Source: Paenibacillus tundrae (GTDB taxonomy: Bacteria; Bacillota; Bacilli; Paenibacillales; Paenibacillaceae). From it: 64,000 bases of DNA. A program made the position numbers and the translations under genes. The stretch spans positions 1,612,001 to 1,676,000 of the forward strand of contig NZ_CP145605.1 of assembly GCF_036884255.1 (NCBI RefSeq), written 5' to 3'. Positions 43,799 through 63,218 of the stretch are shown here, piece after piece. Under the pieces are notes generated by a model, which saw nothing but the letters and a program-made list of their open reading frames with translations, searched no databases and had not been told where the DNA came from. How positions within the stretch are numbered: the first letter of the stretch is position 1; every line of letters begins with the position of its first letter.

Positions 43799-44913
43799 AT
43801 GAATGAACATGCTACGACCAAAGAGACGATTACGATATCAAAAGGTTCTGCTGAGGTACTGCACATTTATATTCCATATAACCCTGCTCACATTGAGCGG
43901 ATTCGTCGGATCACGGGTAGAACGTGGCAAGCGAAAGAAAAAGTATGGGTCATCCCCTACACCACATCAGCTATACAGGAGTTCATGAATCAATTTGATC
44001 CAATTGATGTTCAGATTGCCCCAGAGTTGTGGGTGGAGAGTGAGGATTTACAGCAATGGAAAGCTAGCAAGGGAAACAGTGCATGGAGCAAAGAACCATT
44101 ACAGAAGGCATTAACATTACGAGGATACAGTCGCAAAACGATCAAAGCCTATTGTAATCAGATCGAACGCTTTCTGAGTAGCTGCCAAATTGAAAGTACA
44201 GCTGTGACTACTTCAGTAGTTCAACGTATTGTTTAAATTTGCTTGAGCGAGGGATTTCCCATTCCAGTGTAAACCAGACGATCAGCGCGATTTGCTTCTA
44301 TTGCAAACATGTGCTCCATCATCCTACAGAGATCCAGTATATTCGTCCCAAGAAGCAGACCAAGTTGCCACAAGTATTGTCTGAAAAAGAAGTAGCTCAA
44401 TTACTCACATCCGTAACTAATCTCAAGCATAAAACGATTTTGTTTCTCACGTATTCGTCTGGTCTTCGTGTAGGTGAAGTCGTTCGTCTACGTTGTAGCG
44501 ATCTGGATATTGAGCGCCAGACCCTTATTGTAGGGCAGGGAAAAGGTCAGAAGGATCGAAGAACCCTACTCTCCAATATTGCTTGGGAAATTGTGCAGAA
44601 ATATATAGTCGAATATAGACCCCAGCGTTGGTTATTTCCGGGACAATCTTCGGATCGGCATCTGACCGAGCATAGTGTGCAAAAGGTTTTTGAGGAAGCC
44701 AGACAACGCGCAGGCATTGTGAAAAAGGTTAGTATTCATGTCTTACGACACTCTTTCGCCACGCATTTACTGGAAAACGGTACAGACCTGCGCTATATCC
44801 AAGAGCTGCTTGGTCACACAAGTGCACGAACAACCCAGCGATATACGCATGTGAGTACCAAGAGTATTCAGCGTATTCAGAGTCCGTTGGATCGTCTGGA
44901 TCTGGGCGATTGA
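43799..44913 (+). pseudogene. XerC/D-type tyrosine recombinase of the cassette array (one-base frameshift)
   Basis: The N-terminal frame (43799-44236) has an extra domain (IYIPYNPAHIERIRRITGR) and a core-binding SAM-like domain. The second frame (44239-44913) has the full catalytic domain: Arg in SSGLRVGEV, Lys in GKGQKDR, HVLRHSF, LLGHTSARTT and Tyr in TQRYTHV, ending QSPLDRL. One missing T in the run at 44232-44234 would restore a 372-residue protein reading QRIVLNLLERGIS. The long insertion before the HxxR box that marks integron IntI proteins is absent. AAGGAGG precedes the ATG. It reads towards the array, the reverse of most integrons. As read it is probably inactive unless phase-variable or a sequencing error. 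Confidence 0.88.
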
Positions 44914-45047
44914 GTGTTGCTATAAATCTCCCTTTTTCGCCAAATTCTCCTTCGCAAATACCAGTGCTTGGGGTATCATATACGTAGTCGGATATCAGAC
45001 AGAACATGTGGTATTTACGAAGTACATAAATTAGATGTTATAGGAAG
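44914..45047 (+). other. Candidate attI-like insertion site
   Basis: Between the recombinase stop and the first cassette stands GTTATAGGAA at 45037-45046, without the hairpins of the attC-like sites. Its TTATAG matches, as a reverse complement, the end box CTATAAC of the first cassette. That makes G45037 the expected crossover base. A small inverted repeat ATACC/GGGTAT precedes it. Extent of the site is a guess. Confidence 0.6.
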
Positions 45048-45091
45048 TCAGCAAAAGACTTATTTTCATCAAAATAATGAAGGAGAATAAT

Positions 45092-45727
45092 ATGAAATTG
45101 TTAGAGCTTAGTAATATAAATAACTTGAAAGTTAAAGAAGGATTTTACAATGGAATTTCAGGTAAGGCGGTATTCAGCAAAAATAATAATATTCGTAAAC
45201 GTTATTTTTTGGAGAAACGCTGGGGTCAAGGAACGAATGTACTAACTGCACTTATGATGAATCCAAGCAAAGCGGCACATGATAATTCTGATGATACGGT
45301 CAACCAATTAATTGAGGTAGCTAAGAATAATAATTGTGATGCTCTATATGTAGTTAATGTATCAAGTTATATTGAGGGCAGTAGTAAAAAAATGAAAAGT
45401 GATAAATTTATTTTTGATAATATAAATTGGAGCTATATAGAACATGCTATATCAGAATCAAAGATAATATTTATTGGATGGGGAATGAAAGGGCAAAATG
45501 GGATATTACAACAAATTAAAAAGAATAGGAATGTAATAAGAACGTTAAATGAAGCAAAGGAACTTATTTACGCTTATGAATTTGTTCAATCTAAAAATAA
45601 GAAGTATATTAATAAACCTTTTTATTATGTTCCTCATCCTAGACCAATATGGAATAAAGAAAAGTATAGAAAACAGAGTTTGCATAAATTGACTTTAGTT
45701 CAATTTGATAGATTATTTAATAGATAA
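45092..45727 (+). CDS. Cassette 1: DUF1643 protein
   Basis: This 211-residue protein matches DUF1643: KRYFLEKRWG near the N-terminus, LMMNPSKAAHDNSDDTVNQL and the C-terminal YVPHPRP. DUF1643 proteins are frequent in mobile elements and have no established role. ATG at 45092 has AAGGAG seven bases upstream; the frame from 45077 includes the ribosome binding site itself. AT-rich codon use contrasts with the gene before the array. Confidence 0.82.
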   Translation: MKLLELSNINNLKVKEGFYNGISGKAVFSKNNNIRKRYFLEKRWGQGTNVLTALMMNPSKAAHDNSDDTVNQLIEVAKNNNCDALYVVNVSSYIEGSSKKMKSDKFIFDNINWSYIEHAISESKIIFIGWGMKGQNGILQQIKKNRNVIRTLNEAKELIYAYEFVQSKNKKYINKPFYYVPHPRPIWNKEKYRKQSLHKLTLVQFDRLFNR

Positions 45728-45793
45728 GAATATTCGAATTTCAATATACGATTAATTTTGTAAGCAAGATTATTCAATGAAGTCGCTGACATC

Positions 45794-45889
45794 CTATAAC
45801 ATAATATTCACGCTGCGGACATTCATCCTTGGTCTGGCAGTCGCCAGACAACCGACATACGTCGGTTCGCGAATACAGGAACGTTATCT
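45794..45889 (+). repeat. attC-like site 1 (class A)
   Basis: R''-box CTATAAC and R'-box GTTATCT. Hairpins are GGAC/ATCC, GTCTGGC/GCCAGAC and ACCGAC/GTCGGT; the outer arm is TATTCACG/CGCGAATA. Expected crossover is after G45883. Confidence 0.85.
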
Positions 45890-45917
45890 GAAATTCATGT
45901 TAGGAGCTGATTAAATA

Positions 45918-46673
45918 ATGATACACGAATACTTGGAATATCCAACTAAAGAGCAGTGGATAGAGATAGAAGAAAATTCGGAAATAAATTCCTTATATTT
46001 AGAAGTAAAACGACCAGAAATAAATGATCTTTTTGCTATGTTTGCAGAACAAGAATTAGCTAGTTGGATCAGATTGTTTAATAATAGACTTGGTCAGTCG
46101 AGAATGAGTTATATCTTTTTTAAACACTATTACAATAAAGGTATTCCTGATGAAGAGTGGTACATATCACCGGGTAAAGATGGACAATCAATTCAATACT
46201 TCCCTCATTTTAAGAAAGACGAAACAATTAACTACAAAGTGATGTTCGATTATTACGTCGATGCTTTCTATTACAAATTTTTCTCTGCATGGGATACTAT
46301 TTTTCATATCATAAATGTCCAATACCAATTTGATGTAGATAAAGATAAAGATTTTAATCGAAACATATTAACCAACCTTAATAAGGTTAACCCAGCTTTG
46401 AAGAAACAGTTTAATAAAACTAATTACTCTGAGGCATTTAAAAAATCAAGGGTACTTAGAAATGATATCACACATAATTTTGCTCCTAATGATATTAGTT
46501 CTGGAATAAGTAAAAAGAAAGAAGATGGGCAATTGAAAGAGATAAGCTTTGGCGTCGGAAGTTATACGCCGTCAAGCGAATTTGTTCAAAATATAGATGA
46601 AGTAATAGATGAGTTTATTAAATTTTTGAGGGTATTTAAAAGAGGGCTTGAAAGTAGTCCAAAGAAGCCATGA
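45918..46673 (+). CDS. Cassette 2: HEPN-like (Cthe_2314-type) protein
   Basis: This 251-residue helical protein has RVLRNDITHNF near residue 183, an R-x4-H motif typical of HEPN ribonucleases or their inactive relatives. The arrangement resembles the Cthe_2314 HEPN group. HEPN proteins often act as RNA-cutting toxins in antiviral or toxin-antitoxin systems. No antitoxin gene shares this cassette. AGGAG lies 11 bases before the ATG. Confidence 0.72.
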   Translation: MIHEYLEYPTKEQWIEIEENSEINSLYLEVKRPEINDLFAMFAEQELASWIRLFNNRLGQSRMSYIFFKHYYNKGIPDEEWYISPGKDGQSIQYFPHFKKDETINYKVMFDYYVDAFYYKFFSAWDTIFHIINVQYQFDVDKDKDFNRNILTNLNKVNPALKKQFNKTNYSEAFKKSRVLRNDITHNFAPNDISSGISKKKEDGQLKEISFGVGSYTPSSEFVQNIDEVIDEFIKFLRVFKRGLESSPKKP

Positions 46674-46678
46674 ACTTC

Positions 46679-46774
46679 AGATAACATAGTATTCACACTG
46701 CGGACATTCGTCCTTGGTCTGGTATACGCCAGACACCCAGCATGCGCTGGGTAGTGAATACGGGAATGTTATAT
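46679..46774 (+). repeat. attC-like site 2 (class A)
   Basis: R''-box AGATAAC and R'-box GTTATAT. The third stem is ACCCAGC/GCTGGGT in place of the usual ACCCGAC/GTCGGGT, a compensated change. Outer arm has a small variation (TATTCACA). Confidence 0.85.
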
Positions 46775-46880
46775 GACATCTTGCAGTCCAACCATTAAGG
46801 ATTAAAACAGATTGTATGATCAAATATAGATTATATTGATGATAAGAAATGAAAAATTCAATGGATAAGGTGGGGCAGCG

Positions 46881-47836
46881 ATGAAAAGAAATTTTCTTTT
46901 TGTTAATACGATTATATCTGAGCTTAATAGTACAAGAAATGAATTTGTTAAAATTAAAGAGGAATTAAATTCAGGACTTAGCGATATATTGCTAAAAGGA
47001 TTATTTACATACCAAGTTTCTAAATTTGAGACAACCTTGAATGAAATTATTAAAATGTTTTTGAATGCATTTCCTGAGAAGATCCAGAGAAAAGTTTTAA
47101 ACCTACAAAAGAAAAAGTTATCGAGAATTCAGAATCTTTAATATCTTCTGTTGTTGATAGTTATATAAATGAGCTTTCGTATAAAAATCTCCATGAATAT
47201 TTAAAGGTTTTTATTGATATAACAAGTATTGAAAAAAATACGGATGAAATTATTGATAAGTTAATAGAGATGAAAGAAACAAGGAATTTATTAGTTCATA
47301 ATGACTTAAAGGTTAATGAAATATATCTTGCAAAGTGTAAGAATTATAAAAGAGCTTCTGACAAGGACATAAATAAGTATATTGATTTTGATGAAGAATA
47401 TATCAAAGAATGTCTTAACCTTTGTGTTGATTTCATGGATTCTTATTTATTAACTAAACTTCAAATGAAGTATAAAGATTATACGAAGATAAAAGCTATG
47501 AAGGAAATATGGGATTATCTTTTTGATACACCTATTCTTAAATTTGATGATTTTTGGGAACATGATGGAACATATCTAAATTATTTTAAAATGGATGAGG
47601 AAACGTTGAAGGCAAAGATAACAATGTGTTCTACAACTGAAAAGATGAGTTTGTTCTATTTATTAATACAATACAGTGACTCATTAGTAGAAGCGTATTT
47701 AGAAAAATATCAATATAGATTATTGTCTCTTGGAAATCTACACGGAAAAAGAAAAGAGGATCACATATATTTACAAGCGATTTTGACCAAATATCCTAGA
47801 TTGTTTCAGCAAGACATCACGCATCATATAATATAA
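46881..47836 (+). pseudogene. Cassette 3: HEPN-like protein, frameshifted
   Basis: The first frame (46881-47141) gives an N-terminal helical part ending in a false tail KKKLSRIQNL. The adjacent frame resumes at about 47090 with TKEKVIENSESLISSVV and runs to 47836. The joined protein has about 318 residues with RNLLVHND, an R-x4-H HEPN motif, in the second part. The shift lies in the A-rich stretch 47085-47118. The stop codon falls inside the next recombination site. It is probably a decayed nuclease-type cassette gene. Confidence 0.65.
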
Positions 47837-47903
47837 TATTCATGCTGCGGGCATACGCCCTTGATCCGGCAGTCGTCGAGTCGTGAATACGGGAACATTA
47901 TAT
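47826..47903 (+). repeat. attC-like site 3 (class A, shortened)
   Basis: R''-box ATATAAT (core C changed to T) and R'-box ATTATAT (core G changed to A). One internal hairpin is lost, leaving GGGCATACGCCC and a fused remnant, so the site may be impaired. Confidence 0.75.
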
Positions 47904-47993
47904 GAAATGATTAACTATTTGAATTTCTTTTATTTAGTATCATAGAATTTATACCTACAATAAACAAATTGAAAAGGTTCGTTCAAACTAAGA

Positions 47994-48018
47994 AAAACCC
48001 CTTTCAACGAAGGGGCCA
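47994..48018 (-). terminator. Terminator of the reverse-strand cassette 4 gene
   Basis: CCCCTT/AAGGGG hairpin followed on the reverse strand by five T. Confidence 0.7.
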
Positions 48019-48030
48019 ACACAGAATATA

Positions 48031-48345: not shown

Positions 48346-48453
48346 CTCGCATTCCTCCTGGATTATTATTGAAATAACACTTTAATTTTATCATATTAAT
48401 TATATTTAAAGAAATAAATTACAATCATGGAGCACGAAGAAGGCATCCCAATC

Positions 48454-48549
48454 ATATAACATAATATTCACGCTGTGGGCATACGCCCTTGATTCAGCAT
48501 TCGCCGGACACCTAGCATTTGCTAGGTCGTGAATTCAGGAACGTTATCT
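48454..48549 (+). repeat. attC-like site 4 (class A)
   Basis: R''-box ATATAAC and R'-box GTTATCT. Third stem is ACCTAGC/GCTAGGT, another compensated variant; first stem is GGGC/GCCC. Confidence 0.85.
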
Positions 48550-48574
48550 GAAACCGATTGAAAGGAGTAGAAAA

Positions 48575-49336
48575 ATGAATAACCTACCATCAATTGAAGA
48601 AGGCGAAAAGATAGTCGCTGATCAACTGAAAGATGAATTGGAATTCCACATAAATTGTTGTAAGAGTTGTTGCAATGTTATCGCAAAGTCTATTGAGGCA
48701 TATCCAGATATAGATTTAGATAATGCAACAAGTTCAATTAAAGTTGTTACTTCCTTACTTGCAAAAGTTCTTAATGATTTAAGAACTGCTTCATTATTAT
48801 CAGCAACAGGATATCCGTCTCAGGCTGCAACTATTGTTTCATCATTATACGAATCTGCCTTTATGATAGCTTACATAGGAGATAATGATGATTTAGCAAA
48901 TAAGTGGATAGAACACGAAGATGCTACTAAATTATTTATCAATGTAAAGGAACTTACAAAACAAGGTTTGAAAAATATTGATGCACCAAATTACGAAGAA
49001 TTTTATCTACAAGAATACAATGATTATAGGCAGCTATGCATGATAAAACATGGTAATCCTTTAGTGCAAAAGAATCTCGTATTTTTAGTTGAAGGGAACT
49101 CGGTAATTGCTGATTTTGGACCAGAAACAAGTGAATTTTCTATAAAAATAAGCTGGTATGCGTTAGAAAAAGCAATAAATTATTCAATGATATCGATTTC
49201 AGCTTATATAAACTTTCATCTTATAGATAACACAACTTCTGAAATTATTGAACATTTTAATAGTGTAAAAGAATCTTACAAAGAAATGGGAAGAAGAGCA
49301 GTCGAGAGGTGGGGAATTGAAAATACACAGCCTTAA
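48575..49336 (+). CDS. Cassette 5: DUF5677-like helical protein
   Basis: This 253-residue all-helical protein has the pattern DLRTASLLSATGYPSQAATIVSSLYES followed by a WIEHEDATK segment, which resembles DUF5677 and related HEPN-like proteins. Cys-rich CCKSCCN near residue 29 is unusual. Function is unknown. AAAGGAG precedes the ATG. Confidence 0.65.
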   Translation: MNNLPSIEEGEKIVADQLKDELEFHINCCKSCCNVIAKSIEAYPDIDLDNATSSIKVVTSLLAKVLNDLRTASLLSATGYPSQAATIVSSLYESAFMIAYIGDNDDLANKWIEHEDATKLFINVKELTKQGLKNIDAPNYEEFYLQEYNDYRQLCMIKHGNPLVQKNLVFLVEGNSVIADFGPETSEFSIKISWYALEKAINYSMISISAYINFHLIDNTTSEIIEHFNSVKESYKEMGRRAVERWGIENTQP

Positions 49337-49362
49337 TAGTAGCTCAATGAAGAATCGGCACC

Positions 49363-49479
49363 AGATAACATAATATTCAAGCAGCGGCTCCTTTCGGAGC
49401 CTTGGTCTGCTAGATGGATTTCGTAGAGGAATTTCAGCAGACAACCCCTTTGGGGTTTATGAATACAGGAACGTTATCT
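49363..49479 (+). repeat. attC-like site 5 (class B)
   Basis: R''-box AGATAAC and R'-box GTTATCT. The outer frame is that of class A (TATTCAAG / TTATGAATA, CAGGAAC), but the inner hairpins are different: GGCTCC/GGAGCC, GTCTGCT/AGCAGAC enclosing GGATTTC/GGAATTTC, and AACCCC/GGGGTT. Confidence 0.82.
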
Positions 49480-49545
49480 GAAAGATACGTAGAGATAGAG
49501 AATAATCTGAACAAATAATAAGAACATGAATGTTAAGGGGGTTCT

Positions 49546-49866: not shown

Positions 49867-49899
49867 GAAGTAAGAAAAATCGAAGAAGACGTATCCATT

Positions 49900-49995
49900 A
49901 GATAACATAGTATTCATGTTGCGGACATTCGTCCTTGATCCGGCATTCGCCGGATACTCGACATACGTCGAGTCATGAATACAGGAACGTTAGAT
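49900..49995 (+). repeat. attC-like site 6 (class A)
   Basis: R''-box AGATAAC and R'-box GTTAGAT. Stems ATCCGGC/GCCGGAT and ACTCGAC/GTCGAGT; outer arm TATTCATG/CATGAATA, a compensated change of the usual TATTCACG/CGTGAATA. Confidence 0.86.
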
Positions 49996-50023
49996 GAAAT
50001 ATGACAATAGAAAGAGGAAAAAG

Positions 50024-50887
50024 ATGAAAGAATTATCACATACGTTAAAACAAGAGTTAGAATCAATGGGGGTTCATCTGTTTGAAATAGATGAAAGCAA
50101 TTTAAGCAAAACCAAGCAGTTCAAATACAACTGCTATATATATGATTCAGATAAACACTATACAAACCATGTGGTGTATATTAAAGATATAGTCGGCACA
50201 TTACATCCTTCATATGAAGGTCTATCATTTTTAGACATTTTCACAAAACTTAAAAGGAGAGAAAGAATTGTATCAAACTATTTGGAGAATTCATCCTATT
50301 ATACTGAACAATTAACTCGGGATATATCTGATGATGAAAATGATCGACCATGTTTTATAAAACTAAATGATGAATATTACGTTGATACCGGTAATCACCG
50401 AATTACTATTTGCAAATTAAAGGAATTTGATTATGTTGTAGGCGATGTTACGGAGCTTATTTGGAATCCAAACAAACAAAAATTGTGGGATGGGTATATT
50501 TATAGAGGCTTTAAGTTGGATTATGATTCAACTAATGATCGATTAACAGTCTTCTTTGATGACGATTATGTATACTTCGATGACCGTACGGTAATTGAAC
50601 TTACTGAATTCCTCATTCTTTATGATAAAATTTCAATACATAAATTAGGTTTTATTAAGAACAGAAAGTTAAGGAGTCAAAGTATGAAGTATAATTATTC
50701 AAATGCGAGTTTTCAATTTAATAGAGTATTCAATAAACTATTACAATTTAAAAAACAGCTGTTAGCATTTCATGAGGATTATACGTCATCTAACATAATA
50801 TTCACGCTGCGACTCCTAACGGAGCCTTTGTCTGTGGGAAGGAATTTCGAGAGGGATTTCAGCAGACAACCCCTCCGGGGTTCGTGA
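50024..50887 (+). CDS. Cassette 7: ParB/Srx-like fold protein
   Basis: This protein of about 287 residues contains YYVDTGNHRITICKLKE near residue 124, which resembles the D-G-N-H-R core of ParB/sulfiredoxin-like nuclease or NTP-binding domains. The last 33 or so residues are encoded by the recombination site itself, so this C-terminus would change if the cassette moved. ATG at 50024 is chosen for the AAAGAGG upstream; an earlier ATG overlaps the R'-box of site 6. Confidence 0.62.
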   Translation: MKELSHTLKQELESMGVHLFEIDESNLSKTKQFKYNCYIYDSDKHYTNHVVYIKDIVGTLHPSYEGLSFLDIFTKLKRRERIVSNYLENSSYYTEQLTRDISDDENDRPCFIKLNDEYYVDTGNHRITICKLKEFDYVVGDVTELIWNPNKQKLWDGYIYRGFKLDYDSTNDRLTVFFDDDYVYFDDRTVIELTEFLILYDKISIHKLGFIKNRKLRSQSMKYNYSNASFQFNRVFNKLLQFKKQLLAFHEDYTSSNIIFTLRLLTEPLSVGRNFERDFSRQPLRGS

Positions 50888-50904
50888 ATACAGGAACGTT
50901 AAGT
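50788..50904 (+). repeat. attC-like site 7 (class B)
   Basis: R''-box ATCTAAC and R'-box GTTAAGT. Inner stems GACTCC/GGAGCC, GTCTGT/GCAGAC and AACCCC/GGGGTT; outer arm TATTCACG/CGTGAATA as in class A. The cassette 7 gene reads into it. Confidence 0.82.
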
Positions 50905-51089
50905 GTAACTTCTGAAAGAAAACTGTAATACAAATTTAAAACTGATGAGTGCTTACTATTGGAAAGGGAACAGAGAAGCGGATTCTAAATTAAGCAAGAA
51001 AGAATTAAGAATTAATTCTTCTTTATTTGATGGCGTGTTTAAGCTATCAATTTTGATATGATAATAAAGAAGTATAGAAAAAATCAATA

Positions 51090-52423: not shown

Positions 52424-52575
52424 TAATATTTTAAGTTTAAGAATTAAACAAGTAATGTTTGCTAGTCTATGCTAGGACACACGAAGCAGATTAAAACTTC
52501 TATATTGAAAAGATGAGCAAAGTAAATCGATAAATTAAGAATAAGTTTAAGATACCTCAGGAAGTCAGAAGCAAC

Positions 52576-52671
52576 ACTTAACATAATATTCACGCTGCGG
52601 ATATTCGTCCTTGATCCGGCATTCGCCGGACACCCGACAAGCGTCGGGTCGTAAATACGGGAACGTTAGGC
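52576..52671 (+). repeat. attC-like site 8 (class A)
   Basis: R''-box ACTTAAC and R'-box GTTAGGC. Stems ATCCGGC/GCCGGAC and ACCCGAC/GTCGGGT; outer arm TATTCACG/CGTAAATA has one mismatch. Confidence 0.85.
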
Positions 52672-52709
52672 GAAAGAACGAAACATGTTACTTAAGAAAG
52701 GAAATGAAA

Positions 52710-53213: not shown

Positions 53214-53233
53214 ATGTGTAGCTATGTTCCGTC

Positions 53234-53329
53234 GTCTAACATAATATTCACGCTGCGGACATTCGTCCTTGGTCTGGCATTCGCCAGACACCCGACATGA
53301 GTCGAGTCGTGAATAAAGGAACGTTAGGC
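53234..53329 (+). repeat. attC-like site 9 (class A)
   Basis: R''-box GTCTAAC and R'-box GTTAGGC, fully consistent with the integron consensus RYYYAAC and GTTRRRY. Stems GTCTGGC/GCCAGAC and CCGAC/GTCGA-type. Confidence 0.87.
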
Positions 53330-53371
53330 GAAATTATTGCAATCAAATAATGAAAGGAAGGATAGTTGAAG

Positions 53372-53950
53372 ATGGGAATGCCTTCAAAATCAAAGATATT
53401 TGAATATTGGATGAATTGGTTAGCTGAGAAGGGAATTGATTGGGGAGAGCCGTGTTGTTGGGCATGTGGAAGGTTTTGGGGGGATAAATATGATATAAAG
53501 AAACCTCATGCAACTAGGGAAGAAATAATAAAGAATTGGGATAATGTCCCTTTACAAAGATGCCATATTATTGCCAAGCAATTTGACGGTACTGACGAAC
53601 CCTCAAATTTGTTTTTAATGTGCAGGGATTGTCATGATAAAGCTCCGAATACTAGATCGGTAGAAGCATTCTTAATATGGACAGAAAAGCAAAATTGGTA
53701 TGAGAATTTTAGAGATGAAGTAATGAAGGAAATGAAAAATTTTGGACTTGAAGACAGGATTGAAGAGCTGAACGAAATAATTGCAAATAGAGAGATAAAG
53801 GGTAAAATCATTGGAAACTTAGGGATACATATGAATCAGAATGGAAAAGGTGCTCAAATAACCATCTCAACATATATTTCAGCGTTATATGAATATCTAA
53901 AAGAACAAGACAAATTGAAAGTCTCCCAAGAAGGCAATAACCTCGCCTAA
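53372..53950 (+). CDS. Cassette 10: HNH endonuclease-like protein
   Basis: This 192-residue protein has a zinc-finger HNH signature: CCWACG near residue 28, LQRCHIIAKQFDG near 64, then NLFLMCRDCHDKAP near 83. This is the usual order CxxC, His, Asn, CxxC of HNH nucleases. It probably cuts DNA; whether it is a restriction-like or homing-type enzyme is open. The stop codon TAA is inside the R''-box (GCCTAA). GGAAGG precedes the start. Confidence 0.78.
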   Translation: MGMPSKSKIFEYWMNWLAEKGIDWGEPCCWACGRFWGDKYDIKKPHATREEIIKNWDNVPLQRCHIIAKQFDGTDEPSNLFLMCRDCHDKAPNTRSVEAFLIWTEKQNWYENFRDEVMKEMKNFGLEDRIEELNEIIANREIKGKIIGNLGIHMNQNGKGAQITISTYISALYEYLKEQDKLKVSQEGNNLA

Positions 53951-54040
53951 CATAATATTCACGCTGCGGACATTCATTCTTGGCCCGGCATTCGCCGGAC
54001 ACCCGACATACGTCGAGTCGTGAATACAGGAACGTTATAC
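53945..54040 (+). repeat. attC-like site 10 (class A)
   Basis: R''-box GCCTAAC and R'-box GTTATAC. Stems GCCCGGC/GCCGGAC and ACCCGAC/GTCGAGT. The preceding gene's stop overlaps the R''-box. Confidence 0.86.
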
Positions 54041-54111
54041 GAAAGTTCTGAATCACCAATGAAGAGTTAGAACTAACTTAACTAGATTATTACCAAAAAA
54101 GGAGCTATACA

Positions 54112-55272
54112 ATGGCCAATTTAAAAGTGTTTATATCTTCAACTTGTTATGATTTAAACGTAGTAAGATCTCAGCTTAGAAATTTCGTCAATAATTTCGG
54201 TTATGATCCAGTCATGAGCGATTATGCTGATGTATTATACGATCCGCGGGTACATACTCACACAAGTTGTGTTCAAGAAGTTACAAATTGTGACGTCTTA
54301 ATTTTAATTATGGGTTCCCGCTTTGGAGGGAAAGCAATTCCTAAAGCAGCCGAAGTAGTAAATCTGGAGTACCTGAAAGATAAAAGTAAAAGTAATAAAA
54401 TACTTGACGATTCTGCTAACCTGTCTATCACTCAATTAGAAGTTATTCGAGCAATAGAGTCAGGAATTCCAATATTCACCTTCGTAGAGAATAAGGTCAT
54501 GCATGATCATTTAGTTTACGAGAAAAATAAAGACAAAGAATTTATTGAAAGTTTAGATTTCCCATCTTTTGCTGATAAACCAGAAACAGCGAAGTATGTC
54601 TTTGAATTTATAAACTTCTTAAGGCACAGAATCGAAAATAACAGCATAGTTAGTTTTAATAGAATGGAGGACATAGAATCCTATCTAAGAAAACAATGGT
54701 CAGGATTACTTCAAAGATTATTGTATGAACAAAGATTTAAAAAGCAAGAAGAAATTAAAATAGACTATTTGGCAAATCAAATTGCCGATATAAAAACTGC
54801 GATAATGACATCTATTTCTAGTAGCGATCTAAAAGATACAGCAAGAGGTGCTATAAAATTTAGACATTTAGTAGATTTTTTTAGACAGCTGAAGAATTCA
54901 AATACAAGAGACTTACTATTATTAGACATAACATTTCAAGACCTTTTAACAAGATTAAGCATTATTGATATCATTTCTATTGATAATTCGAATAGGTTTA
55001 ATCGGTTAACTGCTTTAATACTTGAAGATGGGACATTTTTTGAATTGCGATATCCGATTGGTTTTATTGAAAGGCTTAAAGATGACTGGATGGAATTCAC
55101 TATTCTGAATCAAACAAGTAGACAAGCAATAATAAATGCTATCTACGATATTGATGATAATAGACCAATGAGAAATTTTCGATACATTGATAAGCAATTT
55201 AGTGATGTGTTTATTGAAAATCAAGACGGCGATTTGAATTTAGTACAAGATGAAGGAAATTCAACAGATTAA
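54112..55272 (+). CDS. Cassette 11: DUF4062 protein
   Basis: This 386-residue protein has an N-terminal DUF4062 domain: KVFISSTCYDLNVVRSQL at the start, CDVLILIMGSRFG near residue 64 and LEVIRAIESGIPIFTFV. DUF4062 has a TIR/SIR-like flavodoxin fold and occurs as the sensor or effector part of STAND-type and other conflict proteins. The C-terminal 170 residues are helical and unrecognised. AAAAGGAG precedes the ATG. Confidence 0.82.
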   Translation: MANLKVFISSTCYDLNVVRSQLRNFVNNFGYDPVMSDYADVLYDPRVHTHTSCVQEVTNCDVLILIMGSRFGGKAIPKAAEVVNLEYLKDKSKSNKILDDSANLSITQLEVIRAIESGIPIFTFVENKVMHDHLVYEKNKDKEFIESLDFPSFADKPETAKYVFEFINFLRHRIENNSIVSFNRMEDIESYLRKQWSGLLQRLLYEQRFKKQEEIKIDYLANQIADIKTAIMTSISSSDLKDTARGAIKFRHLVDFFRQLKNSNTRDLLLLDITFQDLLTRLSIIDIISIDNSNRFNRLTALILEDGTFFELRYPIGFIERLKDDWMEFTILNQTSRQAIINAIYDIDDNRPMRNFRYIDKQFSDVFIENQDGDLNLVQDEGNSTD

Positions 55273-55352
55273 TATTTTGATAAAAAGTTAGAACAATTAA
55301 ATTATAATTCTGGCTTCTTATTGTTTCGTATATTCAAAGGGGCAGCCCCTTC

Positions 55353-55448
55353 GCCTAACATAATATTCACGCTGCGGACATACGCCCTTGATCCGGCAGT
55401 CGCCGGATACCCGACATACGTCGGGTCGTGAATACAGGAACGTTAGGC
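55353..55448 (+). repeat. attC-like site 11 (class A)
   Basis: R''-box GCCTAAC and R'-box GTTAGGC. Stems ATCCGGC/GCCGGAT and ACCCGAC/GTCGGGT. A palindrome AAGGGGCAGCCCCTT abuts the R''-box on the left and belongs to cassette 11. Confidence 0.87.
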
Positions 55449-55583
55449 GAAACCTCATAGTAGATAGTAAATAGAGGGGAATACAATGATGTATTATGCT
55501 CTTATTCGTATGAACGAAGTTTTTCCACATAACAGTGATGTTGCTAAGTGGATAGTTTGGACCTATGTCAAGAAAGTAGACAC

Positions 55584-56420
55584 TTACGCGACGGATTTGT
55601 CCGTAAATTTCTTCGCAAAACGAGCAGGGGAAAGATAACCTAGCGCACCATGCATTCGCTTGCGGTTGTAATAGAACTCAATGTACTGGTAAATGGTGTT
55701 ATAAGCCTCTTCTGGATTCTTAAAACGAGGGTTACAGTGAATGAGTTCTTTCTTCAAAATACTGTGCCAAGACTCGATACATGCGTTATCGTAACAGTTT
55801 CCTCGGCGGCTCATACTGAGCTCCATACCATACGATTTCAGTTGCTCCACGTATTCTTTTGACGTGTACTGCGAGCCACGATCCGAGTGATGTAGCAGTC
55901 CTGGAGCGGGGCGTTTGGCCCGGTAAGCATCATTCAATGCACCTAGCACCAGACTCGTTTCCATATGGTTGTACAGACGCCAGCCTACAATTTCACGCGT
56001 ACATAAATCCAGAACACTGGCGAGATATAACCGGCCTCCTCGGCAGGGAATGTAGGTGATATCGGTGACCCATACGGTGTTCGGTTTGGACGTTTGAAAT
56101 TGCTGGTTCAGCGTATTTGGTGCAATGGGATGATGATGGTTAGAATCCGTCGTTTGGACACGATACCGAGGAGTGTGCACGGAACGAAGATTCATTTGAC
56201 GCATGTATATACTGACGGTACGGGAAGAGATTCTGTATCCTTCCAGATGGAGCGCATACGTAATTTTCGGACTTCCACACCGCTTCTGGTGGTCGTAGAA
56301 ATGAAATCGAATACGCTTCATGATCTCAGTTCTCCGGTGCTGCTGTTTACTTGTTCGATCCATCCGCCACTTGTAATATCCGCTCCGTGACACGTGTAAC
56401 AGAGTGCACATCTTCTCCAA
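55584..56420 (-). CDS. IS3-family transposase OrfB (DDE)
   Basis: This 278-residue integrase-core transposase has the DDE triad: WVTDITYIP (first Asp), LHHSDRGSQYTS (second Asp) and CIESWHSILKKE (Glu). A HTH_21-like region precedes it. OrfB is normally made as an OrfAB fusion by -1 frameshifting on the A7G stretch at about 56492-56498, so the listed ATG is only the first in this frame. It appears intact. Confidence 0.93.
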   Translation of the reverse strand: MEKMCTLLHVSRSGYYKWRMDRTSKQQHRRTEIMKRIRFHFYDHQKRCGSPKITYALHLEGYRISSRTVSIYMRQMNLRSVHTPRYRVQTTDSNHHHPIAPNTLNQQFQTSKPNTVWVTDITYIPCRGGRLYLASVLDLCTREIVGWRLYNHMETSLVLGALNDAYRAKRPAPGLLHHSDRGSQYTSKEYVEQLKSYGMELSMSRRGNCYDNACIESWHSILKKELIHCNPRFKNPEEAYNTIYQYIEFYYNRKRMHGALGYLSPARFAKKFTDKSVA

Positions 56421-56458
56421 AGAAAACAGGGAGCGATGGTTTTCCAGAAACTGAAACC

Positions 56459-56776
56459 TTAGCTCTTTGGTTTGCTGAAGATGTGCACTGCTTTTTTTAC
56501 AATAGCCAGTTCCTCTTGCGTGTCCGCAAGCGTATGCTCTTTCTCTTGAAGTAACCGGCGCATTTCTTTAAGCTCTGCTTCCAGTTCTTTCACTCGATCT
56601 ACGCTAGCTACGGGCTCATGTTTAAGTTCGCGATACTTGCCCATCCACTGGTGTAATGTACTTTTTGGAATGTTGAGTTCTTCTGCCAAGTCTCCGAGTG
56701 TCTTGGTCTGTTCTTGGATAAATTTTACCGTTTGTTTCTTAAATTCTTCATTGTATCGTTGCCGCTGTTCTCCCAT
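56459..56776 (-). CDS. IS3-family transposase OrfA (helix-turn-helix)
   Basis: A 105-residue protein with an N-terminal helix-turn-helix (FIQEQTKTLGDLAEELNIPKS) followed by a leucine-zipper-like coiled coil (RVKELEAELKEMRRLLQEKE). It binds the IS ends and supplies the N-terminus of the OrfAB transposase. The slippery AAAAAAAG lies near its end. Confidence 0.9.
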   Translation of the reverse strand: MGEQRQRYNEEFKKQTVKFIQEQTKTLGDLAEELNIPKSTLHQWMGKYRELKHEPVASVDRVKELEAELKEMRRLLQEKEHTLADTQEELAIVKKAVHIFSKPKS

Positions 56777-57338: not shown

Positions 57339-57422
57339 ATGAGTATTAGAGAATCGATTGAAGTACTTATTGATTTTTCTAGCGAAGTAAGTAAACATTA
57401 TTTAAAAGCATTTTGTAAGTAA
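57339..57422 (+). CDS. Cassette 12: possible 27-residue peptide
   Basis: A short frame MSIRESIEVLIDFSSEVSKHY... starts 3 bases after the previous stop and ends shortly before site 12. It may be translated by coupling. The evidence is position only. Confidence 0.25.
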   Translation: MSIRESIEVLIDFSSEVSKHYLKAFCK

Positions 57423-57436
57423 TTCAATGAGGCATC

Positions 57437-57532
57437 GCCTAACATAATATTCACGCAGCGGACATTCGTCCTTGGTCCGGCATTTGCCGGACACCCGACA
57501 TGCGTCGGGTCGTGAATACAGGAACGTTATCA
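57437..57532 (+). repeat. attC-like site 12 (class A)
   Basis: R''-box GCCTAAC and R'-box GTTATCA. Stems GTCCGGC/GCCGGAC (loop ATTT) and ACCCGAC/GTCGGGT; outer arm TATTCACG/CGTGAATA. Confidence 0.87.
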
Positions 57533-57568
57533 GAAATCCTATTAAACAATTAAATGAGAGGAGAATTT

Positions 57569-58321
57569 ATGGGGCATTTAACAATAGCAGAAGTGAAAGA
57601 AATAAAAACACTTATTATGCAAGCTAGGAGTCTTGAGAAAACAATTGATGACATATTGAGCAGAGATGGTATGGAAGCTAATAAGTATACTTCATTTAAA
57701 TCAATGGCTCATATCTATAATGATATAGCTACAAGATCTGCAACAGTAATGAAAATTGGGAACTTCTACAAAATGAATACTGAAGAAATGAAGGGATGGG
57801 CAGATACACTTTGGCCAACAGCAAAAAGCATTTTAGAAACTGTTCTGATAAGCACACGTATCCTGATTTCCTCATTAGAAAGCAATATTGACTTTGTAGA
57901 AGAAGAAGTAGATAACATTGAGAGCTTTATTAAAACAAAATTAAGAAGTGTACTTTATGAAATTCCACAAAAAGAGAAGGAAGTTCAGAATGCTATAGAA
58001 AACTTATTTGTTGGAAAAGGTTTCAATAAAGCTATTGATTATGATAGAGAGACAGGGAAATTTAATTTCTCAGGTAGGGAATACATACCTGATTTTATTC
58101 TGCCCAAACTTAGAATGTGTATAGAAGTAAAATTGTTAAAAGATGTTGCTAAGAAATCCCAGATAATTGAAGAGATTAATGCTGACATAACTGCATACTT
58201 GAAAGAGTATGAAAATGTTCTTTTTGTAGTTTATGATCTTGGTGTTATACGAGATGAATTGGAATTCTGTAGAGACATTGAAAGTAATGAAGGCATAAAA
58301 ATAATAATAGTAAAACATTAA
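57569..58321 (+). CDS. Cassette 13: PD-(D/E)XK nuclease-like protein
   Basis: This 250-residue protein has a long helical N-terminal region and a C-terminal domain with YIPDFILPKLRMCIEVKLL, which fits the D-x(n)-E-x-K core of PD-(D/E)XK restriction-like nucleases, preceded by KGFNKAIDYDRE. Such C-terminal REase-like domains occur in many defence proteins. ATG at 57569 follows GAGAGGAG. Confidence 0.74.
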   Translation: MGHLTIAEVKEIKTLIMQARSLEKTIDDILSRDGMEANKYTSFKSMAHIYNDIATRSATVMKIGNFYKMNTEEMKGWADTLWPTAKSILETVLISTRILISSLESNIDFVEEEVDNIESFIKTKLRSVLYEIPQKEKEVQNAIENLFVGKGFNKAIDYDRETGKFNFSGREYIPDFILPKLRMCIEVKLLKDVAKKSQIIEEINADITAYLKEYENVLFVVYDLGVIRDELEFCRDIESNEGIKIIIVKH

Positions 58322-58352
58322 TGGATGCGTATTCTTAGGAGAATAGGACATT

Positions 58353-58468
58353 TGATAACATAATATTCAAGCAACGGCTCCGTTGGAGCCTAGGTCTGGG
58401 GGAGGGATTTCGAAGAGGAATTTCAGCAGACAACCCCGTTGGGGTTCATGAATAAAGAAACGTTATCA
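58353..58468 (+). repeat. attC-like site 13 (class B)
   Basis: R''-box TGATAAC and R'-box GTTATCA. Inner stems GGCTCC/GGAGCC, GTCTG/CAGAC and AACCCC/GGGGTT; the sequence between matches sites 5 and 7. Confidence 0.83.
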
Positions 58469-58503
58469 GAAACCGGCCAAAGAAAAGAGGCTAAATAATT
58501 CAA

Positions 58504-59409: not shown

Positions 59410-59452
59410 ACATTTAATGACTGAAGGTATATTCTAAAGTAGTGCCGACATC

Positions 59453-59548
59453 TGATAACATAATATTCACGCGGCGGACATTCGTCCTTGGTCCGGCATT
59501 CGCCGGACACCCGACATGCGTCGGGTCGTGAATACAGGAACGATAAGT
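59453..59548 (+). repeat. attC-like site 14 (class A)
   Basis: R''-box TGATAAC and R'-box GATAAGT, in which the first T of the GTT core is changed to A. Stems GTCCGGC/GCCGGAC and ACCCGAC/GTCGGGT. Confidence 0.85.
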
Positions 59549-59583
59549 GAAATTCCGAGGCGAAATTGAAAGGAAGGTAAGTG

Positions 59584-60114
59584 ATGTTTCATGGAGATCT
59601 GTTCAATGAATTTGAGACTGCAAAAAATTATCAAGAAGCCTTTCTGTCGATGAAAAGAGAGTGGGACAAAGGGAAGCGTGATTTGAGTATATGCTTGAAT
59701 TTAGGTTTTTTATCCTGGTATTTGAGTGTCGAATCTGGAAATACGTTTGTTACTGAGGGGCTTAATGAAAACGATTATGAGATGATTGAATTGACATTAA
59801 ACGAAGTTACAGAGAAAGGGATACATAATTTCTCTACAAAAACGCAGTTTTTATTGATTTTCGGTTATATGATTACGTTGTTTCCTCAACATTTTGGAGA
59901 CTATGAGCATTGGGAAAGCATAGGTAAAAACATGCTGTCAAAAGCATACAAGTTGGAACCAAGTGATCCAATAATTGAAATGCTTTTTCTTGCGGATAGT
60001 ATGAAAAGTGAAGGTTATAAAAATGCTTGTTTAAGAGCAAAAGAACATATTACAGACAGATTTAAGAATAAAGGATTAATGGATAAATATTTTCAAGACG
60101 TATTTGATAGGTAA
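59584..60114 (+). CDS. Cassette 15: hypothetical helical protein
   Basis: This 176-residue protein has TPR-like helical pairs (KNYQEAFLSMKREWDKGKRD; MLSKAYKLEPSDPIIEML). It resembles small uncharacterised proteins found beside polymorphic toxins, but no relation can be proven. AAGGAAGG precedes the ATG. Confidence 0.62.
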   Translation: MFHGDLFNEFETAKNYQEAFLSMKREWDKGKRDLSICLNLGFLSWYLSVESGNTFVTEGLNENDYEMIELTLNEVTEKGIHNFSTKTQFLLIFGYMITLFPQHFGDYEHWESIGKNMLSKAYKLEPSDPIIEMLFLADSMKSEGYKNACLRAKEHITDRFKNKGLMDKYFQDVFDR

Positions 60115-60128
60115 TTCAGAGGAACATC

Positions 60129-60224
60129 ACTTAACAATATATTCAAGCTGCGGGCATACGCCCTTGATCCAGCTTTCGCTGGATACCCGACATATGTCGG
60201 GTCGTGAATACAGGAACGTTATAC
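60129..60224 (+). repeat. attC-like site 15 (class A)
   Basis: R''-box ACTTAAC and R'-box GTTATAC. Stem two is ATCCAGC/GCTGGAT, compensated relative to ATCCGGC/GCCGGAT; stem one GGGC/GCCC; stem three ACCCGAC/GTCGGGT. Confidence 0.85.
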
Positions 60225-60240
60225 GAAAGGACCGAAGCGA

Positions 60241-60690: not shown

Positions 60691-60718
60691 ACATTTGTGA
60701 GTAATTCAAGATCCCTTC

Positions 60719-60802
60719 GCATAACATAATATATAACGTTCCTGTATTCACGACTCGACGTATGCCGGACCAAGGGCGCATGCCCGCAGCGTGAAGTTAT
60801 CG
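60719..60802 (+). repeat. attC-like site 16 (class A, internally inverted)
   Basis: Outer boxes GCATAAC and GTTATCG are in normal orientation, but the whole interior (GTTCCTGTATTCACG ... CGCAGCGTGAA) is the reverse complement of the usual site. One stem is shortened. The inversion retains cassette boundaries. Confidence 0.8.
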
Positions 60803-60840
60803 GAAATTCCTTAAAACTTTATATGAAAAGAGGATCAATA

Positions 60841-61368
60841 TTGAGAACCAAAAAAAACGATAAGAATGGCATTGAATGGACGTATAGAGATATGAAATGG
60901 TCGATAGTTGTACTAGTTGCAATCATTATATTGATACTATCTTTACGAATCAGCGCAGATCAAAACGTCACTAATATTTTATCTATAGGCGGAAGCCTAG
61001 TGTCAATCATACTTGGGATTGTAGCTATATTAATTTCAGTTATACAAAATAACAGCTCTGCAAGATTAGATGGGCATGTCTCAACAACTTTAGCTTTAAT
61101 TAATCAAAAATTAGAATCAATAGACAGTCAAATTAATAAGATGGAACCATATTCTAAAGAAACAATAGACGCATCAGAAGTAGAAACTCAAGGAGAAAAA
61201 ATCACACGGATAAATGGCATCTATAGTACTAATAAGGAATGGGGAGGGCCTGAGTTTGTAAGAGAAATAAAAAAGGAATTATCTCTAATAAACGAAGAAT
61301 ATCAATTGATAGATTATAGTATTATACCGCTGAGAATTGGACAAGATAACGTATTTAAATTCTCATAA
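60841..61368 (+). CDS. Cassette 17: membrane protein
   Basis: This 175-residue protein has two N-terminal membrane helices (about 22-38 and 48-68) and a C-terminal hydrophilic domain with a short coiled coil (INQKLESIDSQINKM). Unknown family. TTG at 60841 is preferred because GAGG stands seven bases upstream; the ATG at 60823 lacks a site. Confidence 0.58.
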   Translation: MRTKKNDKNGIEWTYRDMKWSIVVLVAIIILILSLRISADQNVTNILSIGGSLVSIILGIVAILISVIQNNSSARLDGHVSTTLALINQKLESIDSQINKMEPYSKETIDASEVETQGEKITRINGIYSTNKEWGGPEFVREIKKELSLINEEYQLIDYSIIPLRIGQDNVFKFS

Positions 61369-61511
61369 GTTTATTGTTTAAAGGACATATTAAAGAAAAT
61401 TTATTGGAACAGATTATTCAAAGTACTTTGAGTAATATGGGAATCAATAGTTATCATAGCGAAGTATATATAAACGATAATTTGTAGTTGAATCTTTGAA
61501 GAAGGAACATC

Positions 61512-61607
61512 CGACAACATAATATTCACGCTGTGGGCATGCGCCCTTGGCCCGGCTTTCGCCGGACACCCGACATACGTCGGGTCGTGAATACGGGGAC
61601 GTTATAG
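61512..61607 (+). repeat. attC-like site 17 (class A)
   Basis: R''-box CGACAAC and R'-box GTTATAG. Stems GGGCATGCGCCC, GCCCGGC/GCCGGAC and ACCCGAC/GTCGGGT. Confidence 0.86.
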
Positions 61608-61673
61608 GAAATCAACAAACACACAAAGAGAACTTGTATTATTCAACATATTTTTTTGAGGAGAAGTGATTGA

Positions 61674-62141
61674 GTGAATAAAGACATTCTACTTGAATGG
61701 GACAGTAAGCATCGTGCGATGAAACGCACGAAAGAAAATTACTGGAAAACCTATAGGAAGTGGCGTGACGAGAACAAGAGCGATTATCATGATACTTTTA
61801 TGGGAAAGTTATATGATGAATTTATAAGTGTTGAAGAGCGTGCTATATACCTAAAATATAGTTTTAATACAGCAGAAGCCGTGCTATTTTGCTCTATTAA
61901 TATCTTTTACATAGAAGAGCAAATAGGAACTTATGATATAGAGTTCTTTTTGAACGGTGAGATCGCTGATGAATACCTGAATTTTGGAGACGTGTTACTT
62001 AAAGATCGTATGATTAAAGTAAAGTATAATTTGAAGACTGCAAGAAGCGCTTTAAAACTGGGATTTGAATTATCAGATATTATGAAAATCACAGAAATTC
62101 CACACAAATACATAGAAATATTAAAAGAAAAATATAGTTGA
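61674..62141 (+). CDS. Cassette 18: hypothetical protein
   Basis: This 155-residue, charged, mostly helical protein has no recognised domain (YWKTYRKWRDENKSDYHD near residue 23). It starts with GTG and has GAGGAG about ten bases upstream. AT-rich like its neighbours. Confidence 0.6.
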   Translation: MNKDILLEWDSKHRAMKRTKENYWKTYRKWRDENKSDYHDTFMGKLYDEFISVEERAIYLKYSFNTAEAVLFCSINIFYIEEQIGTYDIEFFLNGEIADEYLNFGDVLLKDRMIKVKYNLKTARSALKLGFELSDIMKITEIPHKYIEILKEKYS

Positions 62142-62193
62142 TATAAAGGGATGGTATAAGAAGTATAAGTGATTCGAAGAAGCTTCTGATATC

Positions 62194-62239
62194 CAATAAC
62201 ATAATATTCACGCTGCGGGCACATGCCCTTGATTTATCA
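62194..62239 (+). repeat. attC-like site 18 (truncated)
   Basis: R''-box CAATAAC, TATTCACG and the first hairpin are present (GGGCACATGCCC). The site then jumps from CTTGAT directly to TTATCAG, losing two hairpins, the L' arm and the G of the crossover core. Confidence 0.75.
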
Positions 62240-62263
62240 GAAAGACTATAAAGGAGGGAGAAG

Positions 62264-62950
62264 ATGAAGCTTTTTTCTGGAGTAGAGCCCTTAATTCAAG
62301 AAGCTGATCTTTTACAACCCTCAATATATACGCCACTTGGAACCATTGAGTTTTCGCTTTCTGTCTCCAACAAATGTTATCTTCCAACTCAATGTTTTCG
62401 ACTCAAACAAGGTGGTTCATTATACCAGTATAGCTATGACTTGTTTGATTGCGAATTAGTGGTCTGCAAACCTAAGCTCGATCTTGCTTCGCATCTGACA
62501 ATCGAGGAATGTTGGGGAGCCGTATTTAGAATTCAACCGAATAAAAACCGTCAGATTGATACATGTAGTTTTTCTTCTTATTGGCAGGAGGGATACAGCT
62601 GGAAAGATTACGGCTCTAATACCGGGGAACATCTTGAAGCTATTGAGTATGAGAACGAGAAATACCGATTACATGTAGGAACTCAGGATGGAGAGCTTTT
62701 AATGGCAAGACGAGATCGAGGCGATATGATTCCTAAATCGCTAAATTTGAATTCAGATTTTGAGAAACATGGTTTTATTATAAGTTCAGATCAAGGCATT
62801 GAAGTACCTATGACACGAATTGAATCTCAAGAGACATGCCAAGTACATTTTTTAACAGCTTGGAATCGAAAGATAGAAGAAGATATTTCCACATGGCTAG
62901 CGGTAGATTTACTTTCGAAACAAATACTAGAGGGAGAAGAACTTTTGTAA
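62264..62950 (+). CDS. Cassette 19: hypothetical protein
   Basis: A 228-residue protein of mixed alpha/beta character, rich in Trp/Tyr/Glu (HLTIEECWGAVFRIQPNKN). I do not recognise a family. AAGGAGGG precedes the ATG at good distance. It lies in the cassette bounded by a truncated and a degenerate site, so it is probably no longer mobile. Confidence 0.62.
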   Translation: MKLFSGVEPLIQEADLLQPSIYTPLGTIEFSLSVSNKCYLPTQCFRLKQGGSLYQYSYDLFDCELVVCKPKLDLASHLTIEECWGAVFRIQPNKNRQIDTCSFSSYWQEGYSWKDYGSNTGEHLEAIEYENEKYRLHVGTQDGELLMARRDRGDMIPKSLNLNSDFEKHGFIISSDQGIEVPMTRIESQETCQVHFLTAWNRKIEEDISTWLAVDLLSKQILEGEELL

Positions 62951-62979
62951 ACATGTTCAAAAGAAGTTTCTAGTCCATC

Positions 62980-63151
62980 CGATAACATGATGGCTTAGCT
63001 TATACATCACCTAACACATTGTTCATGTTGTGGACTTTCGTCCCTTGGTTGTGAGGTGTATAATAATGGAAGATAATCAGACAACAAACGCTCCAGCCCA
63101 AGATAAGAGCTATCTAAGGCTGGGGCGTTTCTTGAATACAGGAACTTTAGC
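62980..63151 (+). repeat. attC-like site 19 (degenerate)
   Basis: R''-box CGATAAC is followed by a second box ACCTAAC at 63009, a decayed arm GTTCATG and hairpin TGGAC/GTCCC. An unrelated insert contains a strong hairpin (CGCTCCAGCC/GGCTGGGGCG). It closes with TTGAATACAGGAACTTTAGC, where the GTT core has become CTT. Confidence 0.6.
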
Positions 63152-63218
63152 AGAAATTAGGGGAATGCTTAATTATTATAAAGATTAGATAAACTATTAT
63201 CTAAGGGTGGGGATTTCG

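What the first reader, a model, noticed from the sequence alone, without database searches (positions are those of the whole stretch)
43799..63151. Integron-like gene-cassette array in a Paenibacillus-type chromosome
Nineteen tandem units, each a promoterless-looking gene followed by a conserved folded site with R''-like (nnnTAAC) and R'-like (GTTAnnn) boxes, lie downstream of a tyrosine recombinase gene. Integrons are established mainly in Proteobacteria and a few other phyla. I know of no well-described system in Paenibacillus, though I cannot check this. The array would be a Gram-positive counterpart with its own site class and its own recombinase type.
Basis: partly seen in the sequence, partly recalled or inferred. 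Interest (0 to 1): 0.95.

Follow-up and report, generated by a model that had tools for sequence, protein, structure and literature searches.

The report
Integrons with a new recombinase type
A Paenibacillus chromosome carries a tandem row of at least 17 gene cassettes laid out like an integron, but beside a different kind of recombinase, which lacks the segment regarded as essential in known integron enzymes and is predicted to have inserted the cassettes one by one; relatives of this recombinase lie beside similar arrays in several other groups of Gram-positive bacteria, where integrons have been reported as extremely rare.

Summary
The array is real and best explained as an integron-type gene-capture platform with its own recombinase lineage. 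Nineteen sites follow a tyrosine recombinase gene (broken in this genome) and the array runs past the window end. Decisive test: each cassette's 5' site box is complementary to the start of the same cassette, 65 of 72 positions, 0 of 100,000 permutations. This repeats in other arrays (360 of 432 own against 231 of 432 next) and in a known Vibrio integron (19 of 21 against 6 of 21). In 12 aligned Paenibacillus loci conservation stops at the attI core GTTA. In the stretches compared, 19 of 26 cassettes lack a counterpart of 397 nt or more in a relative 96% identical beside the array. Sites: 186 of 295 genomes of the family. In 18 loci of close recombinase relatives outside the family, 11 have rule-obeying sites and 15 an attI-like motif; in 10 loci of distant relatives, 1 and 0. 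The recombinase lacks the IntI insert and has a weakly assigned HARP-like N-terminal domain. Recombination itself is untested. New variant of the integron kind.

The parts
43799..44236 (+). Recombinase, N-terminal part (HARP-like domain plus start of the SAM-like domain); frame ends at a stop
   Evidence: intact relatives of 369-371 aa; 71% identical to P0003 residues 1-153
44239..44913 (+). Recombinase, catalytic part (Phage_integrase), in another frame than the N part
44951..44979 (+). Predicted promoter Pc into the array: TTCGCA-17 nt-TATCAT
   Evidence: read in the sequence; conserved in the alignment of 12 loci; not tested
45020..45041 (+). attI: AAGTACATAAATTAGATGTTA, core GTTA at 45037-45040
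   Evidence: homology to 8 of 9 other genomes ends at 45040-45042; alignment of 12 loci
45792..45894 (+). attC-like site 1
46677..46779 (+). attC-like site 2
47824..47908 (+). attC-like site 3 (inner part shortened; TAAT/ATTA instead of TAAC/GTTA)
48452..48554 (+). attC-like site 4
49361..49484 (+). attC-like site 5 (second stem type)
49898..50000 (+). attC-like site 6
50786..50909 (+). attC-like site 7 (second stem type)
52574..52676 (+). attC-like site 8
53232..53334 (+). attC-like site 9
53943..54045 (+). attC-like site 10
55351..55453 (+). attC-like site 11
57435..57537 (+). attC-like site 12 (best match to the model)
58351..58473 (+). attC-like site 13 (second stem type)
59451..59553 (+). 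attC-like site 14 (GATA instead of GTTA)
60127..60229 (+). attC-like site 15
60717..60806 (+). site 16: normal outer boxes, inner stem in inverted orientation
   Evidence: model hit on the minus strand at 60726-60804
61510..61612 (+). attC-like site 17
62192..62250 (+). site 18, 5' half only
63007..63157 (+). site 19, long divergent form
45077..45727 (+). cassette 1 gene, DUF1643
45918..46673 (+). cassette 2 gene, HEPN_Cthe2314
48575..49336 (+). cassette 5 gene, DUF5677
53366..53950 (+). cassette 10 gene, HNH endonuclease
54112..55272 (+). cassette 11 gene, DUF4062
57554..58321 (+). cassette 13 gene, DpnII-MboI-like restriction endonuclease
59543..60218 (+). cassette 15, found 98% identical in a different array of the close relative G252

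Best explanation
This locus is laid out as a chromosomal integron whose cassettes were likely inserted one at a time at a fixed attI site by the neighbouring tyrosine recombinase, which has a predicted HARP-like domain and would act on folded single-stranded attC-like sites. Shown from sequence: tandem cassettes, mostly of one gene, each ending in a folded site whose 5' box is complementary to that same cassette's own start; a conserved attI core just after the recombinase gene where homology between genomes stops; and close relatives that differ by whole gene-plus-site units. Inferred: that this recombinase does the cutting, that cassettes pass through circles, that new cassettes enter next to attI under the predicted promoter Pc, and that the HARP-like domain does the job which the I2 insert does in IntI. 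In this genome the recombinase reading frame is broken, so the array may be frozen or served in trans.
For: Own-start rule: 65/72 own against 41/68 next, 0 of 100,000 permutations; 360/432 against 231/432 in other fetched loci; known Vibrio integron 19/21 against 6/21. Fold with compensatory changes. attI boundary: 8 of 9 genomes break at 45040-45042; 12 loci conserved up to GTTA, then divergent. Turnover: of 26 G000 units, 7 have a match of at least 397 nt in the 75 kb of G252 compared, and one of these lies in the other array. Polarity: 31 recombinase places with a printed site on the same contig, nearest site on the same strand in 31, downstream in 29, within 10 kb in 25. Co-occurrence: 87 of 90 family genomes with a recombinase hit have sites against 99 of 205 without. 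Outside the family: Natronospora, 5 sites; a Desulfitobacterium, 33 candidate sites, own 90 of 100 against 57; 18 loci of close recombinase relatives, 11 with rule-obeying sites and 15 with the attI motif, against 1 and 0 of 10 loci of distant relatives.
Against: No recombination assay. The G000 recombinase is in two frames and no second copy appeared at E 1e-60. 99 of 205 family genomes without a recombinase hit still have sites. 7 of 18 close-relative loci showed no rule-obeying site; one of them has only 224 nt downstream. Of these 18, only 12 matched over the N-terminal domain. HARP assignment is weak: one member 0.2 bits over the Pfam cut-off, P0003 itself no match, PDB profile E 0.27, Foldseek E 0.20. 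No LexA-like box in 9 upstream regions. The exact crossover base is not resolved. Some cassettes break the rule, for example cassette 11 (2 of 4) and several.
Confidence: 0.88

Rival explanations
1. It is an ordinary IntI integron that reached Paenibacillus by transfer.
For: Same GTTA core and same own-start rule as a Vibrio integron; best solved relative of the recombinase is IntI 2a3v; the C-terminal SPLDRM resembles the IntI end.
Against: The IntI-specific insert is absent, while passages of PMC9668308 and PMC4792948 treat it as defining; the three IntI form a branch at 100/99 that excludes the HARP group, although the HARP group plus one Rufibacter row is held together at 80/67 only; the site model gives no hit in the Vibrio record; the recombinase has an extra N-terminal domain.
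Confidence: 0.05
2. The sites are recombined by host XerCD and the neighbouring recombinase is a passenger.
For: 99 of 205 family genomes without a recombinase hit have sites; G000's own copy is broken.
Against: Polarity and adjacency, co-occurrence (Fisher p 4e-18, not corrected for kinship), attI motif right after the recombinase in 15 of 18 distant loci. Arrays without an integrase are common in known integrons too (CALINs, passages of PMC9668308 and PMC9024848).
Confidence: 0.05
3. The repeats are a transposable or palindromic element inserted between genes that were already there.
For: Repeats of 85-151 bp with strong stems recur between genes.
Against: An inserted repeat would not match the start of the same unit; homology stops at attI; gene-plus-site units differ between close genomes and one sits in another array.
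Confidence: 0.02

Closest known systems
Sedentary chromosomal integrons with IntI (Vibrio type)
   Same: Recombinase gene, adjacent attI, tandem cassettes, sites with TAAC...GTTA boxes, own-start complementarity
   Different: Recombinase lacks the IntI-specific insert, has an extra N-terminal domain and lies outside the IntI branch; recombinase and cassettes point the same way here, while in the Vibrio record fetched the integrase points away; sites are a three-hairpin class of their own
CALIN elements (attC clusters without integrase)
   Same: The second array of G000 has no PF00589 gene near it
   Different: Sites are of this class; whether IntegronFinder would call them could not be tested
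XerA/XerC-like tyrosine recombinases (NF040815, generic name 'site-specific tyrosine recombinase/integron integrase')
   Same: Catalytic fold and motifs
   Different: Extra N-terminal domain and linkage to cassette arrays; the window's catalytic piece scores under the NF040815 cut-off (184 against 220 bits)
HARP / XPB damage-recognition / UvsW N-terminal domains
   Same: Weak similarity of the recombinase N-terminus to the SMARCAL1 HARP domain, structural resemblance to XPB and UvsW
   Different: Those sit on helicases (recalled); here the domain is fused to a recombinase; all scores are marginal, and unrelated folds (CASTOR1, eIF1) rank alike

Membership tests
IntI integron | Integrase with the IntI-specific additional domain (I2, near patch III) | tested here: not met
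   2a3v aligns in two stretches, chain residues 180-238 against 17 query residues; insert absent in the 10 members and relatives aligned beside three IntI. Definition from passages of PMC9668308 and PMC4792948
IntI integron | attI next to the integrase, where cassettes enter | tested here: met
   (position met; entry inferred)
IntI integron | attC sites: folded, inverted boxes, R' half supplied by the next cassette | tested here: met
IntI integron | Tandem compact cassettes, mostly one gene in one direction | tested here: met
   15 of 17
IntI integron | Bottom strand of attC folds more stably | tested here: inconclusive
   15 of 18 by DNA parameters, margins often under 1 kcal/mol
IntI integron | SOS (LexA) control of the integrase | tested here: inconclusive
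   No GAACN4GTTC-like box with at most one mismatch in 9 upstream regions; the box used is recalled
IntI integron | Promoter Pc reading into the array | tested here: inconclusive
   Conserved TTCGCA-17-TATCAT before attI
IntI integron | Recognised by the IntegronFinder attC covariance model | not testable with these tools
   model not held; Rfam has no match at gathering cut-offs in the window
IntI integron | Excision and integration shown | not testable with these tools
   only genome comparison
HARP domain (PF07443) | Match above the Pfam cut-off | tested here: inconclusive

The most novel reading that the evidence does not exclude
A second, separate lineage of integrons runs through Bacillota and reaches Treponema: HARP-integrons, in which an N-terminal branched-DNA-binding HARP domain replaces the I2 insert of IntI as the device for handling folded single-stranded attC sites, with its own attI, its own attC class and its own cassette pool.
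Probability: 0.6. Interest if true: 0.95.

Novelty: new variant of a known kind. Interest (0 to 1): 0.92.

Why it matters
IntegronFinder 2.0 found a single complete integron, and a few CALINs, in the Firmicutes genomes it examined (PMC9024848, passages). Here one site class alone is in 186 of 295 sampled genomes of one Gram-positive family, and a relative of the recombinase at E 1e-50 or better is in 34 of 398 sampled Bacillota genomes (not all of these matches cover the N-terminal domain). If the system works as inferred, the I2 domain is not the only way to recombine folded attC sites, which makes the origin of integrons directly testable, and a large uncharted cassette pool becomes visible (11 of 20 cassette-region proteins scanned have no Pfam match).

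Tried and rejected
Rfam search of the window: nothing at gathering cut-offs. A stem-based scan of the Vibrio record found no site; a Vibrio-specific pattern did, and it skipped sites in one long gap. The first flank-filtered scan missed the two Treponema sites of L088; the repeat search showed them. L089, the other Treponema locus, showed none, but only about 0.5 kb is held downstream of its recombinase. LexA boxes: none. Plasmid and phage collections hold no DNA match to the one regular site tried. PADLOC on 10 cassette-region proteins: a restriction-endonuclease-like and a weak ZorE-like match only. Crossover base from variants at the first core base: mixed, not resolved. Literature: the searches, in an open-licence PMC library without bioRxiv, listed no paper that by its title or abstract start describes this system; six papers were seen in passages only (PMC9024848, PMC8618304, PMC9668308, PMC8352920, PMC4909258, PMC4792948).

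Rows dropped or limited: the site pattern missed some sites, so some units there are merged cassettes, and only 75 kb of G252 was compared, so a counterpart elsewhere in that genome is possible; a 103-nt match of one further unit was not counted. One search paired places and sites by hand from the printed parts; two places it left out were added, and small fragments of genes already counted were not. One search counts units under 2,500 nt and includes a few overlapping false pairs. One search took 18 places outside the family; four others (G605, G458, G431, G688) lie too close to a contig end and the rest were not fetched; one of its ten comparison loci (L215) looks like a real array. and one search used stricter filters that lose weak matches; weak matches may include chance ones.
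Full report
What is there. The window is G000:C1:1612001-1676000 of a 6.53-Mb chromosome. A tyrosine recombinase gene at 43799-44913 is split over two frames; the G252 gene is open. It is followed by a 21-nt element ending in GTTA at 45037-45040 and then by 19 sites up to 63157. The array runs on to 1680374, and a second array without a PF00589 gene near it lies at 2606675-2614933. Sixteen sites are well formed, one is long and divergent, one has an inverted core, one lacks its 3' half.

The site. Each regular site has an outer TAAC/GTTA pair, an unpaired stretch, an inner TATTCACG/CGTGAATA stem and three hairpins. In 12 sites 95.7% of cells pair and 9 of 29 pairs are changed on both sides; sliding the partner by 1 to 3 columns drops pairing below 40%, though the structure was drawn from these sequences; one of the five measures does not exceed shuffles. 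15 of 18 sites fold more stably on the bottom strand under DNA parameters, often by little; the inverted-core site is no better than shuffled.

The own-start test. In an integron the bases after the 3' core belong to the next cassette, and the 5' box of a cassette pairs with that cassette's own start because the two meet in the circle (recalled). On 18 cassettes the 5' box matches its own start at 65 of 72 positions and the following start at 41 of 68; none of 100,000 random assignments reaches 65. In other fetched loci, the second array of G000 included: 360 of 432 against 231 of 432. Over 151 cassettes, window included, the three variable bases match the own start at 0.85, 0.81 and 0.78 against 0.48, 0.39 and 0.43 for the next. 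A known Vibrio integron gives 19 of 21 against 6 of 21. This is hard to explain without precisely excised units. Exceptions exist, such as cassette 11 (2 of 4).

The entry point. Against 9 other genomes, homology from the recombinase side ends at window 45040-45042 in 8; in G020 it ends at 45077, and one of two copies in G008 at 45052. In 12 aligned Paenibacillus loci the element AAGTACATA(A/G)ATTAGATGTTA is conserved and, apart from a few bases, the sequence after it is unrelated. A promoter-like TTCGCA-17-TATCAT is conserved just before; this is a prediction.

Turnover. Beside array 1 G000 and G252 are about 96% identical. Of 26 G000 units delimited, 7 have a match of at least 397 nt (89-98% identity) in the 75 kb of G252 compared; cassette 15 (98%) lies in array 1 of G000 but in the other array of G252.

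Spread. The site model hits 186 of 295 sampled genomes of the family at E 0.01 or less. A close recombinase is in 90 of them; 87 of the 90 have sites, 99 of the other 205 do too. For 31 recombinase places with a printed site on the same contig, the nearest is on the same strand in 31, downstream in 29, within 10 kb in 25. In the wider phylum 10 of 398 genomes gave a hit, 7 of them outside the family. Three of these hold arrays that obey the own-start rule: Natronospora cellulosivora (5 sites, intact recombinase upstream), a Desulfitobacterium (33 candidate sites, own 90 of 100 against 57; recombinase in pieces; genus by its glutamate synthase, 96% to Desulfitobacterium sp. PCE1) and G601 (5 sites). 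A relative of the Natronospora recombinase is in 34 of 398. I fetched 18 such loci outside the family: 12 match over the N-terminal domain, 6 only over the catalytic part at 54-65% identity. 11 of 18 (7 of 12 and 4 of 6) have rule-obeying sites downstream; shuffled sequence gave 1 hit in 95 runs. An attI-like GTTAnnnG(A/C)(A/C)A lies within 300 nt of the recombinase end in 15 of 18 and 0 of 10; background expectation 0.019. A Treponema contig shows the same arrangement with two sites, read by eye, the first with one mismatch.

Cargo. Of 20 cassette-region proteins scanned, 7 had a Pfam match (DUF1643, HEPN, DUF5677, HNH, DUF4062, DpnII-MboI, Peptidase S51), 2 are transposase ORFs and 11 had none; some smaller ORFs were not scanned.

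Judgement. It works like an integron with high likelihood. It fails the IntI-specific test, so it is not filed as an IntI integron but as a new variant with its own recombinase lineage. The passages seen (PMC9024848) call integrons extremely rare in Firmicutes; my ten searches listed no description of this system, within an open-licence library only.

Noticed in passing
window 55584-56776: An IS3-like transposase pair (rve and HTH_Tnp_1 matches) sits on the minus strand inside cassette 12.
   Followed up: no
window 60717-60806: A site with normal outer boxes but an inverted inner stem, as if the hairpin had flipped in place; the cassettes on both sides still follow the own-start rule (3 of 4 and 4 of 4).
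   Followed up: partly
G000:C1:2606675-2614933 (L052): Second array in the same genome with no recombinase near it; it shares cassettes with an array of G252.
   Followed up: partly
L104, L094, L095, L105 (G711): A Desulfitobacterium chromosome carries 33 candidate sites over about 50 kb beside a recombinase in three pieces.
   Followed up: partly
L088 9665-15837: Treponema contig: relative of the recombinase, attI-like GTTATATGCAATGCG and two sites; the first unit of about 4 kb carries two large minus-strand ORFs that were not searched.
   Followed up: partly
L161 4980-6023: A Chryseobacterium plasmid encodes a 38% relative matched from residue 13, so over the N-terminal domain too; no array was looked for.
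   Followed up: no
one search places on G605, G458, G431, G688, G707: In draft genomes several of these recombinases sit within 3 kb of a contig end on the array side, as if the repeats broke assembly.
   Followed up: no
window 49361-49484, 50786-50909, 58351-58473: A second stem type shares the outer boxes but has other hairpins; cassettes of both types are mixed in one array.
   Followed up: no
L163, L164: Recombinases next to IS91 transposases are the weakly supported nearest neighbours of IntI in the tree (86/74).
   Followed up: no
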